Shown here: positions 6,874-24,384 of the stretch, in pieces
Position numbering within the stretch: the first letter of the stretch is position 1
Layout: each line of letters begins with the position of its first letter
Assembly (NCBI RefSeq): GCF_029953285.1
Contig: NZ_JASAOI010000062.1
Coordinates: 1-64,000 of the forward strand
Length of the DNA: 64,000 nucleotides
Source of the DNA: Yinghuangia seranimata
GTDB lineage: Bacteria > Actinomycetota > Actinomycetes > Streptomycetales > Streptomycetaceae
Direction: 5' to 3'
Position numbers and translations under genes: made by a program
Notes under the pieces: generated by a model
Told to the model about the DNA's origin: nothing
Seen by the model: the letters and a program-made list of their open reading frames with translations, nothing else
Databases searched by the model: none

Positions 6874-8214
6874 ATGGCACCCGATCCAGGCGCTCCCAAT
6901 CCGTATCCGAACCTCGGGTTCAATCCCGCCCCAGGCGCGATACCGACGATTTCCCACATGGTCGACATGCTGCGCGCCGCACAGCGGGCTCTCGACGACG
7001 CCAAGCAGTGCGTCACGACGATCTCCCAAAGCAACAGCGCCGTATGGAAGGGCGATGCCGGGGACGGGTTCCGCAAGGACATCAGCGAAAAGCTGCCCGG
7101 CCGCCTGACCAAGGCGGCCACCTCCATCAGCCAGGCCGCCGACCACCTGACGCAATGGCAGACCGACCTGGCCGGCTTCCAGGACGAGGCCAAACGCCTC
7201 GAAGGCGACGCGGCGGCAGCGAGGCAGAAGCGCGACACGGCCGCACAGAGCGAGCAACAGGCCTCGGGCAACGTCGACTTGCAACTTCTCAACCAGCGCT
7301 TCGACTCCGATGCGGCACTGACGAACGCGCAGCAGCGATACGACACGGCGGCGAAGTCCCTCATCGACGCCCGCACCGCGGCGAACAACGCGGTGGAGGA
7401 GTTCAACGCCATCATCAAGCGCGCCGAGGAACTGCAACACCGCCACGAGTCCGACGCGAAAGCCGTGGCGGGCAAACTGGACGACGCGGATGACATAGCC
7501 CCGCACAAGCCGAGTTTCTGGCAACGGCTGAAAAACCAGTTCACCGACCTGAAGAACCTCGGCGACATGCTGGCCTTCGTCGGAGCCGCGGCCGGCCTGG
7601 CGGCCTTGACGATCCTCAGCGGCGGCACCCTAGCCCCGTTCCTGCTCGCGGGTGCGGCGGCGCTGAGCGCGGGCGCACTGGCCGCACACCTCGCGGATGA
7701 CGGCATGTGGAAGAAGGTTCTGACGGGGAAGGCCGGGTTCCAGGGCTACGTGTCCGTCATCGGCGACGCGATCGGTGCTGTGCCAGGAGCGTCGGCAGTC
7801 GTCATGGCCGGGCGCGCCAGCGTGCGAGCTGCGGTGGCAAGTTCGGCCCAGGCTGTCAGGTGGGGCGGACAGGCGGCCACCAAGAGCCAGTTGCTGGTCG
7901 AAGCAGCCAAAGACATGACCAGGACGTTGCCGGCGGCAAACGCCGCTGTATTCGGCGGTACGCAAGTAACCATCAACACCCTGGTCCAGGCGACCCGGGA
8001 GGGAACTGCGGCTGCTGTGGCGGCGATGCCTGCCGCGTCGACGGCGACCAAGGTGATCCAGGGCCTCACAACGGCCGGCACCGGCTACGACGTTGCCAGC
8101 AACCTCGGGCTGACCCCGAACATCGACCACTCCCCGGTGGACTTCCTGTTGACCGCCCCAGGGGCCAAGCCCGCGTTCGACGCCGGCAGGGCCGCCTTCC
8201 AGCGAATCCCGTGA
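6874..8214 (+). CDS. WXG-motif protein, putative type VII secretion substrate
   Basis: The 446-residue protein has an N-terminal helical hairpin with a Trp-Lys-Gly motif (residues 57-59, AVWKGDAG), the WXG signature of type VII secretion substrates. A long Ala/Gln-rich coiled coil follows to about residue 210, then a hydrophobic double segment (about 230-275), and an Ala-rich C-terminal half with no recognised toxin domain. The organisation resembles N-terminal halves of actinobacterial polymorphic toxins whose catalytic end is missing. ATG 6874 is preferred over the in-frame TTG 6847 because GGGGGAAG sits 9 bases upstream. It is followed after 9 bases by a gene of unknown family, implying an operon. 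Codons end in A or T more often than in neighbouring housekeeping genes. Confidence 0.6.
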   Translation: MAPDPGAPNPYPNLGFNPAPGAIPTISHMVDMLRAAQRALDDAKQCVTTISQSNSAVWKGDAGDGFRKDISEKLPGRLTKAATSISQAADHLTQWQTDLAGFQDEAKRLEGDAAAARQKRDTAAQSEQQASGNVDLQLLNQRFDSDAALTNAQQRYDTAAKSLIDARTAANNAVEEFNAIIKRAEELQHRHESDAKAVAGKLDDADDIAPHKPSFWQRLKNQFTDLKNLGDMLAFVGAAAGLAALTILSGGTLAPFLLAGAAALSAGALAAHLADDGMWKKVLTGKAGFQGYVSVIGDAIGAVPGASAVVMAGRASVRAAVASSAQAVRWGGQAATKSQLLVEAAKDMTRTLPAANAAVFGGTQVTINTLVQATREGTAAAVAAMPAASTATKVIQGLTTAGTGYDVASNLGLTPNIDHSPVDFLLTAPGAKPAFDAGRAAFQRIP

Positions 8215-8223
8215 GCGCCCAAG

Positions 8224-8862
8224 ATGAACATCGACTTCAATCTGCCCGAGGGGTTTCTGGCCATCGACCTGGCCCCCGACCCCGACCGACTGAGGGTCCT
8301 TTGGGAACATGCCACGGGCGCCCTGACCGACGACGAGTTGCAGAGCGCCGCAGCATCATTCGCCACCATGTACGTGGTCCTGGACGAGTTGCGCAGTCGA
8401 CAGACCGTGCACATATCCGTGGGCATACACCCCTATGGGGATGACTCATTCTCCCGTGCCCTGTTCACGGTCTCGCTGCGAGACAGCGAGATACCCGACA
8501 GCAGCCTCGCCCTCCACGCAGTACGGCGCGTCCTCGACGAACGGCCGAGCATGGAAACGGTCACCGATATCGACCTATGGAAGTCCGGACCGGCGATCCT
8601 GATGGACGGGGAGCACACGCCCGACCCGTCCCTGCCCGACGTCAAGCTGCGCCAGAGCCGACTGATCGTCCCGTTCCCGGACGGTGACTCTCGTCTCGCC
8701 GTGATGGACATGGCCACGCCGGACCTGCGCAGCGGGGACGACTACCGTGACCTGCTGATACTGATCGGCGAAACGCTGAGCTTCAGGGAGACCCGACAGG
8801 CCGCCCCCGAGCCTCCCGCACCCGCCGCGGGGCCAGGCCTGATCGCCTCTGTACTCGGTTGA
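8224..8862 (+). CDS. Uncharacterised protein of the WXG cassette
   Basis: I do not recognise this 212-residue protein. It has no signal peptide or membrane segment, is acidic, and is predicted to be a mixed alpha/beta cytoplasmic protein with a Pro/Ala-rich C-terminal tail (about 185-205). It lies 9 bases after the WXG gene and 15 bases before the next gene, so the three are probably co-transcribed. By position it could be a chaperone, immunity-like or accessory factor for the WXG protein. No sequence motif supports any of these. Confidence 0.5.
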   Translation: MNIDFNLPEGFLAIDLAPDPDRLRVLWEHATGALTDDELQSAAASFATMYVVLDELRSRQTVHISVGIHPYGDDSFSRALFTVSLRDSEIPDSSLALHAVRRVLDERPSMETVTDIDLWKSGPAILMDGEHTPDPSLPDVKLRQSRLIVPFPDGDSRLAVMDMATPDLRSGDDYRDLLILIGETLSFRETRQAAPEPPAPAAGPGLIASVLG

Positions 8863-22223: not shown

Positions 22224-22297
22224 GCGCCGCTAGCTCAGTTGGTTAGAGCAGCTGACTCTTAATCAGCGGGTCCGGGGTTCGAGTCCCTGGCGGCGCA
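22224..22297 (+). tRNA. tRNA-Lys, anticodon CTT
   Basis: A 74-base cloverleaf: 7-bp acceptor stem (22224-22230 with 22290-22296), discriminator A, anticodon stem GCTGA/TCAGC with loop CTCTTAA (anticodon CTT), and the TTCGAGT T-loop. CCA is not encoded. A terminator follows. No integrase or duplicated tRNA end is seen nearby. Confidence 0.97.
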
Positions 22298-22309
22298 CTT
22301 CGCGACTAG

Positions 22310-22359: not shown

Positions 22360-22704
22360 TGCGCGGCTTCGCCGCGTGGCGGGGGCTTCGCCACCCGCAC
22401 CCCCCTGGGCCGCACTGTGGTGGGGCTGCGCGGCGGGCGGGGGCTGCGTCGGTCGCACTTCCGTTGAGCCGAACGGGTGTTGGCCCGGCGGGTGGGGCGT
22501 GAGCCACGACACATCAGGCCCTTTGTCGCGTTTTCAGCCATTGATGCGCTTCGAAGTGCGATGTCACGAACGCCCGCTGATGATGAGTGAGGCGCCGCGG
22601 GTCTCATGCGGTCACCGCCGTGTGCGCCCGCCGCGAGGCCGGTGTACGCGGCGGGCTCTTCGGGCACCCGCAGCCGGACCCTTCCGCGAGCCCCCGGAGC
22701 CGTC
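22360..22704. other. Gene-free interval before the sortase-like gene
   Basis: I see no gene here. An ATG at 22606 is in frame with the next gene, but the extra 33 residues are Arg/Pro-rich and have no ribosome-binding site, so the interval is taken as promoter and leader DNA. Confidence 0.4.
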
Positions 22705-23649
22705 GTGACCAGTGCCGCGCCGCAGCCCGAACCGTCCGACGCGCCCGACCGGGCCCGGCCGGCCGAACCGGCCGAACCGGCCGAACCGGCGGAACCGGCG
22801 GAACCGTCCGAGCCCGCCGTCTCCACCGCGCCGGCCGCGCCCGCCGCCGACGCTCCGCGGTCGTCCGGCGCGCCCGAGGGTCACCCGTCCGGCCCCACGG
22901 ACCCGCCCGGTCCGCCCGGCGCGGCGACCGCTGCCGGGCCGCCGGCCGGCGCGGACGAGCCTCCGCCCCCGCCGCCGGCTTCGGGCCCCGGCACCCGCAC
23001 GCTGCTGATCGCCGCGCTGGTCGCGGTCCTCATCAGCGTGGGCCTCGTCTACGGCGCGCGCGCCGGCCTGGACGGCGCGCAGCGGCCGCCCGCGGAGGCC
23101 GCCCGCCCGATGGTCTCGGTCGCCCCGGCGACGCCCGGGTCGACCCCGGCGGACGCCGCGCAGCGCGCCGTCGCCGCGACGCTGCCGCCGTCCCCGCCGG
23201 TGCGCGTCACCATCCCGAAGATCGGTACCAACGCGCCCCTGGTCGGCCTGTCCCTGAAACCGTCCGGCGAGCTCACCGCCCCCGACCCGACCAACCGCAA
23301 CCTGGCGGGCTGGTACAAGGGCGGTGTCACGCCCGGCTCGCCCGGCAGCGCGATCGTGGTCGCGCCCGTCGACACCAAGACCGGACCCGCGGCGTTCCAC
23401 CGGCTCGGCGACCTGCGTCCCGGCGACATCGCGGAGGTCACCCGCGCGGACGGCATCGTGGCGACGTTCCGGGTCGAGTCGGTCGAGATCTTCGAGAAGA
23501 ACGACTTCCCGAGCGCGCGCGTGTACGCCGACACACCCGACGCCGAGCTGCGCCTGGTCACCAGCGCCGGCGTGGACGACAAGGACGCGGGCGGCTACCC
23601 GTCCGGCGTGGTCGTGTTCGCCACGCTGGTCGCGACCCACAGGGCGTGA
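22705..23649 (+). CDS. Class F sortase homologue lacking the catalytic triad
   Basis: The 314-residue protein has a Pro/Ala/Glu-rich cytoplasmic segment with PAE repeats (about residues 18-38), one transmembrane helix (about 98-119) and an extracellular sortase domain (about 165-314). The frame VTIPKIGTNAPLV, LAGWYKGG and GDLRPGDIAEV fits actinobacterial class F sortases. However, the His of the usual GHVD is Pro221 (APVD), the Cys of the usual TC is Ser287 (VTSAG), and the position of the usual Arg nine residues later is Gly296. It should not catalyse transpeptidation. GTG 22705 has GGAG five bases upstream. A strong terminator follows. Confidence 0.75.
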   Translation: MTSAAPQPEPSDAPDRARPAEPAEPAEPAEPAEPSEPAVSTAPAAPAADAPRSSGAPEGHPSGPTDPPGPPGAATAAGPPAGADEPPPPPPASGPGTRTLLIAALVAVLISVGLVYGARAGLDGAQRPPAEAARPMVSVAPATPGSTPADAAQRAVAATLPPSPPVRVTIPKIGTNAPLVGLSLKPSGELTAPDPTNRNLAGWYKGGVTPGSPGSAIVVAPVDTKTGPAAFHRLGDLRPGDIAEVTRADGIVATFRVESVEIFEKNDFPSARVYADTPDAELRLVTSAGVDDKDAGGYPSGVVVFATLVATHRA

Positions 23650-23691
23650 ACCGCAGGGCGTGAGCCGCAGGGTCCGAACCGCAGACGAAGG

Positions 23692-23720
23692 GCCCGGCCG
23701 AGCGCGTCGCTCGGCCGGGC
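23692..23720. terminator. Bidirectional terminator
   Basis: 13-bp perfect stem (23692-23704 with 23708-23720) with a 3-base loop, extended by AAG/CTT outside, between convergent genes. Confidence 0.8.
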
Positions 23721-23765
23721 CTTCGCGTTGCTGTCCGCCGTCAGACCGCGATCGCGCCGGTCGCG

Positions 23766-24233
23766 TCAGGTGGGTTCCCCCGCGTCGCCCCGTTCGCCGT
23801 ACGCCGCGGAGGTCTCGATCTGCTCCTCCATGTCGTCGAGCGTGGCCTGCGGCAGCCGTGTGTACGACAGCAGCCGGCCGCCCGCCTCGCGGATGCGCAC
23901 CGCGACCTCGCGGGCCCACACGTTCTCGACGAAGATCACGACCACCAGTGAGTCGGCGGGCATGATCAGACCGATCTGCTCGACGTCGTTCTCCCCGGCC
24001 AGGCCCAGCATGCGGCGCGCCGCGACCTCGGCGGCCATGTCGCGCAGGTCGTCGTACTCGCTGATCTCGTGGTGGGTGATCTCGCCGTGCGCGTCCTTGA
24101 CCACGATCAGCATGTCGATGACGCGGACGTCGCCGCGCGCCTCGACCTCGTCGACGGCCTCGAGGACCGCAGGCGTGAGGCGGTGCCCCGGGAACCCGAG
24201 CACGATCGCGTCGACGGGCCCCAGCTCGCCCAT
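23766..24233 (-). CDS. DUF6325-family protein
   Basis: The 155-residue protein resembles a family of small actinobacterial proteins that start with GPVD-x-I-V-x-FPG and have no known function (DUF6325, related to DUF1269). It shows a repeated alpha/beta pattern, a central acidic part and a hydrophobic beta strand SLVVVIFVENVWA at about 105-117. ATG 24233 gives the usual N-terminus with GAAGAG upstream; ATG 24260 would add nine residues. Confidence 0.7.
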   Translation of the reverse strand: MGELGPVDAIVLGFPGHRLTPAVLEAVDEVEARGDVRVIDMLIVVKDAHGEITHHEISEYDDLRDMAAEVAARRMLGLAGENDVEQIGLIMPADSLVVVIFVENVWAREVAVRIREAGGRLLSYTRLPQATLDDMEEQIETSAAYGERGDAGEPT

Positions 24234-24384
24234 GTGCACTGTCTCTTCAACACCCGGCATGCAGTCCACGCTAAGCGGGTAAGCCCGGCGCCGCATGCGG
24301 AACGGGACCCGAGCGGACGCATCGGCGGACCGCCGTGGAACCGCGCTGGAACCGGTCTGGAACCGCGCGGAGGCACGATCGTCC

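What the first reader, a model, noticed from the sequence alone, without database searches (positions are those of the whole stretch)
22705..23649. Class F sortase homologue in which His, Cys and Arg of the triad are all replaced
The sortase frame is well kept, but the usual GHVD is APVD (Pro221), the usual TC is TS (Ser287) and the Arg nine residues after Cys is Gly296. All three changes together, in an intact gene with its own ribosome-binding site and terminator, suggest a maintained non-catalytic wall protein or a recent loss of function rather than an annotation error.
Basis: partly seen in the sequence, partly recalled or inferred. Interest (0 to 1): 0.6.

Follow-up and report, generated by a model that had tools for sequence, protein, structure and literature searches.

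The report
Dead sortase that lost its substrate
In this actinomycete, one of several cell-wall-anchoring enzymes (class F sortases) has lost its catalytic histidine and cysteine, and the gene for the protein it probably anchored, still present next door in a sister species, has been deleted.

Summary
The gene at 22705-23649 is intact and clearly a class F sortase homologue. His is Pro221 and Cys is Ser287, as reported. The third claim is wrong: the "Arg nine after Cys" column is not conserved in class F, and the catalytically intact orthologue also has Gly there. The third lost residue is an Asn present in all 121 homologues surveyed, Gly301 here, which aligns with the catalytic Arg of class E.

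The loss is private to this species. The syntenic sister-species orthologue (74% identical) keeps His, Cys and Asn.

[quoted passage not shown] In the window that gene is missing; only its upstream leader remains, next to the sortase, and no orthologue was found elsewhere in the genome.

Best reading: the substrate gene was deleted, the sortase was orphaned, and its active site decayed while the fold persists. Order and cause are inferred. A repurposed, selected pseudoenzyme is not excluded. Local interest is modest. By-products of wider interest are a candidate class F sorting motif (P-H-G-G-V-H-T-G) and a conserved non-catalytic sortase-like family.

The parts
22705..23649 (+). class F sortase homologue, 314 aa, GTG start, no frameshift or stop
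   Evidence: syntenic orthologue in sister species G001
22705..22998 (+). N-terminal Pro/Ala/Glu-rich low-complexity tail (about 98 aa) in front of the transmembrane helix; the sister orthologue has only a short N-terminus here, about 10 aa if its AGGAGG-TTG start is used
22999..23055 (+). single predicted transmembrane segment (TLLIAALVAVLISVGLVYG)
   Evidence: read from sequence
23206..23631 (+). sortase domain, predicted sortase beta-barrel
23365..23367 (+). Pro221 (CCC) at the catalytic His column; sister has CAC
23563..23565 (+). Ser287 (AGC) at the catalytic Cys column; sister has TGC
23605..23607 (+). Gly301 (GGC) at a column that is Asn in 121/121 homologues and aligns with the catalytic Arg of class E sortases
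22541..22641 (+). upstream (leader/promoter) segment that in sister species G001 lies directly in front of the substrate gene (77% identical over 103 columns)
22642..22671 (+). inferred deletion junction: about 630 bp carrying the substrate gene of G001 is absent here; 22647-22671 resembles the G001 sequence just upstream of its sortase
   Evidence: the 25-base match alone is weak: its score equals the best of 200 shuffles
23690..23721 (+). GC-rich hairpin between the convergent genes, without T-run
22224..22298 (+). tRNA-Lys (CTT), conserved flank shared with G001
23766..24296 (-). DUF6325 gene, conserved flank shared with G001

Best explanation
This is a non-catalytic class F sortase orphaned by loss of its partner. 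[quoted passage not shown] In the window lineage a deletion of about 630 bp removed the substrate gene and left the leader directly in front of the sortase. With no cognate substrate, and with other intact class F and class E-type sortases in the genome, selection on catalysis ended, and His, Cys, the invariant Asn and their neighbours changed. Shown: absence of the substrate gene, presence of the leader, loss of the residues, intactness of the sister. Inferred: that the upstream protein is the substrate, that deletion came before decay, and that the gene is now dispensable.
For: Sister G001 is syntenic on both sides (SDR and tRNA-Lys; DUF6325, SARP, SepF) and has an intact sortase. G001 has a 169-aa secreted protein with tail GGVKAGSGG...AGGALLLGGGAFAVYALRRR directly upstream; in the window only its leader remains, and no orthologue was found in the genome. 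89 of 117 class F homologues with enough upstream sequence have such a gene within 650 bp, and 81 of those 89 share the motif P-x-G-G-x-H-T/A-G. Other sortases in the genome give redundancy; the intact class F paralogue at G000:C15 still has its own substrate-like gene. Window end branch is 0.26 against 0.079 for G001. At nine-taxon invariant columns the window changed 7 and G001 1, mostly around the active site. Deleting all four class F sortases of Actinoplanes missouriensis gave no phenotype (PMC13251363).
Against: There is no frameshift or stop, and pairwise dN/dS over the domain is 0.275. A branch codon model gives no raised omega on the window branch and rejects omega = 1 (lnL -3393.48 against -3397.98), though synonymous changes are saturated and the value averages the whole branch. 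The changes at catalytic columns are concentrated rather than scattered. Absence of an adjacent substrate does not by itself predict loss: of 28 homologues without a detected one, 27 are catalytically intact. L023 in G001 lost only Cys while a substrate-like gene stays about 1.3 kb upstream.
Confidence: 0.62

Rival explanations
1. A repurposed pseudoenzyme: the membrane-anchored sortase fold is kept by selection as a binding or scaffold protein, for example to hold a sorting signal, lipid II or another sortase, and the active site was freed or removed.
For: Intact frame, sortase fold predicted at pLDDT 88.6 with Z 17.5 to SrtA structures; conserved scaffold positions kept while active-site positions changed; codon model rejects neutrality on the branch as a whole; a conserved non-catalytic sortase-like family exists in the same family of bacteria.
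Against: The loss is private to one species, so conservation of the dead form cannot be shown; the model is less confident than for the intact sister under the same rows (88.6 against 94.4, beta7-beta8 block 72 against 84); the partner gene is gone.
Confidence: 0.25
2. It still works with another nucleophile, Ser287, and another base.
For: Ser is chemically possible in place of Cys; R128 and R92 (domain numbering), nearly invariant in class F, are kept; a His not seen in homologues stands at domain position 77.
Against: The invariant His is Pro and the invariant Asn is Gly; domain position 77 is L/Y/W/A/F in others, so the new His is unlikely to be a relocated catalytic residue; no homologue in the survey has this combination.
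Confidence: 0.05
3. Sequencing or assembly error.
For: Draft genome, 113 contigs; sequence reads were not available to me.
Against: Several separate substitutions (H, I, C, G, Y, N columns) and a missing neighbouring gene in an otherwise colinear, in-frame region; no frameshift.
Confidence: 0.02

Closest known systems
Class F sortase (NF033748; PF04203), e.g. SrtF of Cutibacterium acnes and SrtF1-4 of Actinoplanes missouriensis
   Same: Domain, single N-terminal transmembrane segment, sortase fold, membership of a multi-copy actinobacterial family, descent shown by a 74% identical intact syntenic orthologue.
   Different: His, Cys and the invariant Asn are lost; no substrate-like gene next to it.
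Sister-species orthologue G001:C20:23740-24204 with its upstream secreted protein
   Same: Same locus, same flanks, 74% identical domain, same AGGY loop.
   Different: Catalytic residues intact; substrate gene present; short N-terminus.
Conserved sortase-like family typified by G000:C89:11665-12282
   Same: PF04203 domain without catalytic His and Cys.
   Different: A different subfamily, non-catalytic in every readable member aligned, with C-terminal hydrophobic segments; the window gene is a recent private loss in class F.

Membership tests
Class F sortase (functional enzyme) | Sequence match above curated family cut-off | tested here: met
   NF033748 168.6 bits, cut-off 166; PF04203 55 bits, cut-off 26.6
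Class F sortase (functional enzyme) | Catalytic His | tested here: not met
   Pro221; H in 121/121 homologues
Class F sortase (functional enzyme) | Catalytic Cys | tested here: not met
   Ser287; C in 120/121 homologues
Class F sortase (functional enzyme) | Residue at the catalytic Arg position of beta8 (Asn in this class F set) | tested here: not met
   Gly301; N in 121/121. Equivalence to Arg rests on a MAFFT alignment with own-genome class E sortases; the profile comparison did not reach that region
Class F sortase (functional enzyme) | Sortase beta-barrel fold | tested here: met
   AlphaFold2 pLDDT 88.6; Z 17.5, rmsd 2.0 over 131 residues to 7f87 and 7cfj
Class F sortase (functional enzyme) | Adjacent substrate-like gene (common, not universal) | tested here: not met
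   Present in 89 of 117 homologues with enough upstream sequence, absent in window
Class F sortase (functional enzyme) | Transpeptidase activity | not testable with these tools
   needs biochemistry
Conserved non-catalytic sortase-like family (G000:C89 type) | Loss of His and Cys shared by orthologues | tested here: not met
   The window's nearest orthologue is intact

The most novel reading that the evidence does not exclude
A class F sortase that lost catalysis but is kept by selection as a membrane-anchored, non-catalytic binding protein after its substrate gene was deleted.
Probability: 0.25. Interest if true: 0.55.

Novelty: new variant of a known kind. Interest (0 to 1): 0.38.

Why it matters
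It is a clean natural case of an enzyme losing its active site together with its neighbouring partner gene, in an enzyme class whose physiological role is called unknown (PMC13251363). The comparison also yields a testable candidate class F sorting signal (P-H-G-G-V-H-T-G before a hydrophobic stretch and arginines) and suggests that class F uses Asn where other sortases have Arg. My limited searches of the open paper library did not find inactive class F sortases or the motif string.

Tried and rejected
G002 gene as strict orthologue: rejected; it groups with another paralogue and its flanks do not match. A general rule 'no adjacent substrate, therefore dead': rejected; of 28 homologues without a detected one only L023 has lost Cys. 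Relative-rate count of 16 against 11 changes is not significant by itself. Codon branch model: saturated synonymous sites, so only a weak statement. Solved structures by sequence: single-protein search gave only an irrelevant weak hit; the profile reached only Clostridium perfringens sortase D, 4d70. Profile comparison of class F with class E aligned only the N-terminal half. The genome-contig scan spent patterns on the low-complexity tail and found little. No sigma-70-type promoter or T-run terminator was found by the scan.

Full report
OBSERVATION. The frame 22705-23649 encodes 314 residues without a stop. It matches PF04203 at 55 bits (cut-off 26.6) and the class F sortase model NF033748 at 168.6 bits (cut-off 166). 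An AlphaFold2 model of the domain has mean pLDDT 88.6 and superposes on sortase A structures with Z 17.5 and rmsd 2.0 over 131 residues. So it is a sortase fold by sequence and by prediction. The genome holds eight further PF04203 matches.

RESIDUES. I aligned the domain with homologues from 200 genomes of the same bacterial family, using about 120 loci read out in full. This sample is biased towards close relatives. In 121 distinct homologues the His column is H in 121 and the Cys column is C in 120. The window has Pro221 and Ser287 there. The intact sister orthologue has the same Gly. The third invariant residue that is truly lost is the Asn of xNVVVFA, N in 121 of 121, Gly301 in the window. 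In a MAFFT alignment with the genome's own class E sortases this Asn stands where those have their catalytic Arg. That equivalence is not confirmed by the profile comparison, which aligned only the N-terminal half.

PRIVATE LOSS. The genus is represented by three genomes. The best match, in G001, is 74% identical and syntenic: SDR gene and tRNA-Lys upstream, DUF6325, SARP-type regulator and SepF downstream. It has AHVD, TCGG and SNVV, that is His, Cys and Asn intact. In the tree the window and G001 pair with support 99/94, with end branches 0.26 and 0.079. The G002 match belongs to another paralogue group and its flanks do not match. At columns invariant in G001 plus eight outgroups the window has changed seven (H66P, Q126E, I130V, C132S, G133A, Y136D, N146G in domain numbering; add 155 for the full protein), G001 one. 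In the wider set Q126/E, G133/A and Y136/F vary somewhat, so the firm ones are H, C and N.

THE MISSING NEIGHBOUR. In G001 the order is leader segment (reverse-complement coordinates 7653-7755 of L054), a 169-aa protein with signal peptide and the tail TGGVKAGSGGTAETETAGLSAGGALLLGGGAFAVYALRRRSSSSPTA (7772-8281), then the sortase. In the window the leader (22541-22641, 77% identical) is followed within about 60 bases by the sortase start; the secreted protein is absent. A 25-base match at 22647-22671 to the G001 sequence just before its sortase marks the likely far side of the deletion, but on its own it is weak: its score equals the best of 200 shuffles. Searching the whole genome with the G001 protein and with its tail found no orthologue; the best hits are tails of other proteins, including the substrate-like gene of the intact paralogue at C15. 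Deletion in the window, rather than insertion in G001, is favoured because a substrate-like gene within 650 bp upstream is found in 89 of 117 homologues with enough upstream sequence and in 81 of 85 rows of the largest clade. The root of that tree is uncertain, so this is parsimony, not proof. G001 also carries about 4 kb of other genes between tRNA-Lys and the leader, and about 2 kb downstream, which the window lacks; their polarity is unknown.

SELECTION. Pairwise dN/dS between window and G001 over the domain is 0.275 (dS 0.58, dN 0.16). A branch codon model gives 0.041 on the window branch and 0.065 elsewhere, not different, and rejects 1 on the window branch by 4.5 log units. Synonymous sites are saturated in that model, and the value averages time before and after the loss, so it cannot decide between recent decay and retained scaffold function. 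The absence of a stop codon is also weak evidence after so few changes (inference).

MECHANISM. I think the sortase was orphaned by deletion of its substrate gene and its active site then decayed. Redundant sortases in the genome and the report that removing all four class F sortases of Actinoplanes missouriensis caused no phenotype (PMC13251363) make low constraint plausible. That paper also noted secreted proteins with a transmembrane segment and basic C-terminus next to srtF1 and srtF4 as possible substrates, which agrees with the pairing seen here. The order of events and the substrate role are inferred. The main rival is a kept binding protein. A counter-example to a simple rule is L023 in G001, where Cys is Val while His and a distant substrate-like gene remain. 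The predicted model of the dead domain is less confident than that of the intact sister with the same rows (88.6 against 94.4; beta7-beta8 block 72 against 84), consistent with loosening of the active-site loop but not proof.

ASCERTAINMENT. The independent findings are the private nature of the loss, the Asn change, and the missing neighbour gene.

BY-PRODUCTS. Of the 89 upstream proteins, 81 share P-x-G-[GA]-[VMLIP]-[HKN]-[TA]-G, most often PHGGVHTG, 37-47 residues before the C-terminus and followed by a hydrophobic stretch and arginines. The same pattern occurs 16 times elsewhere in those frames, so it is enriched at the tail rather than exclusive to it. This is a candidate sorting signal for Streptomycetaceae-type class F sortases; the motif strings were not found in the open paper library. 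A second by-product is a conserved sortase-domain family without His and Cys.

Noticed in passing
L059 11260-12285 (G000:C89:11665-12282) and L151-L170: A conserved family of sortase-domain proteins in which His (G-K/R instead of G-H) and Cys (TA/TG/TS or TT instead of TC) are replaced in every readable member aligned (19), with C-terminal hydrophobic segments. In this genome it sits between a large secreted protein and a gene resembling a phosphate ABC transporter ATPase (neighbour functions read by eye).
   Followed up: partly
upstream genes of class F sortases, e.g. L015, L027-L150: 81 of 89 upstream secreted proteins share P-x-G-G-V/M-H-T-G before a hydrophobic stretch and arginines: candidate class F sorting signal.
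   Followed up: partly
L023 (G001:C88:54165-54620): Another class F sortase of the genus with Cys replaced by Val and His kept; a substrate-like gene remains about 1.3 kb upstream.
   Followed up: partly
class F homologues, column of window residue 301 (23605-23607): Class F sortases of this bacterial family have invariant Asn (121/121) where class E sortases align their catalytic Arg; a near-invariant Arg lies four residues before Cys.
   Followed up: partly
L060 3555-4910 on reverse strand (G000:C54:145112-145456): A further PF04203 protein with Arg and Ala at the His and Cys positions (LTGRAEQ, LIAAGP).
   Followed up: no
window 22705-22998: Low-complexity AEPAEP-type tail before the transmembrane helix, not present in the sister orthologue.
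   Followed up: no
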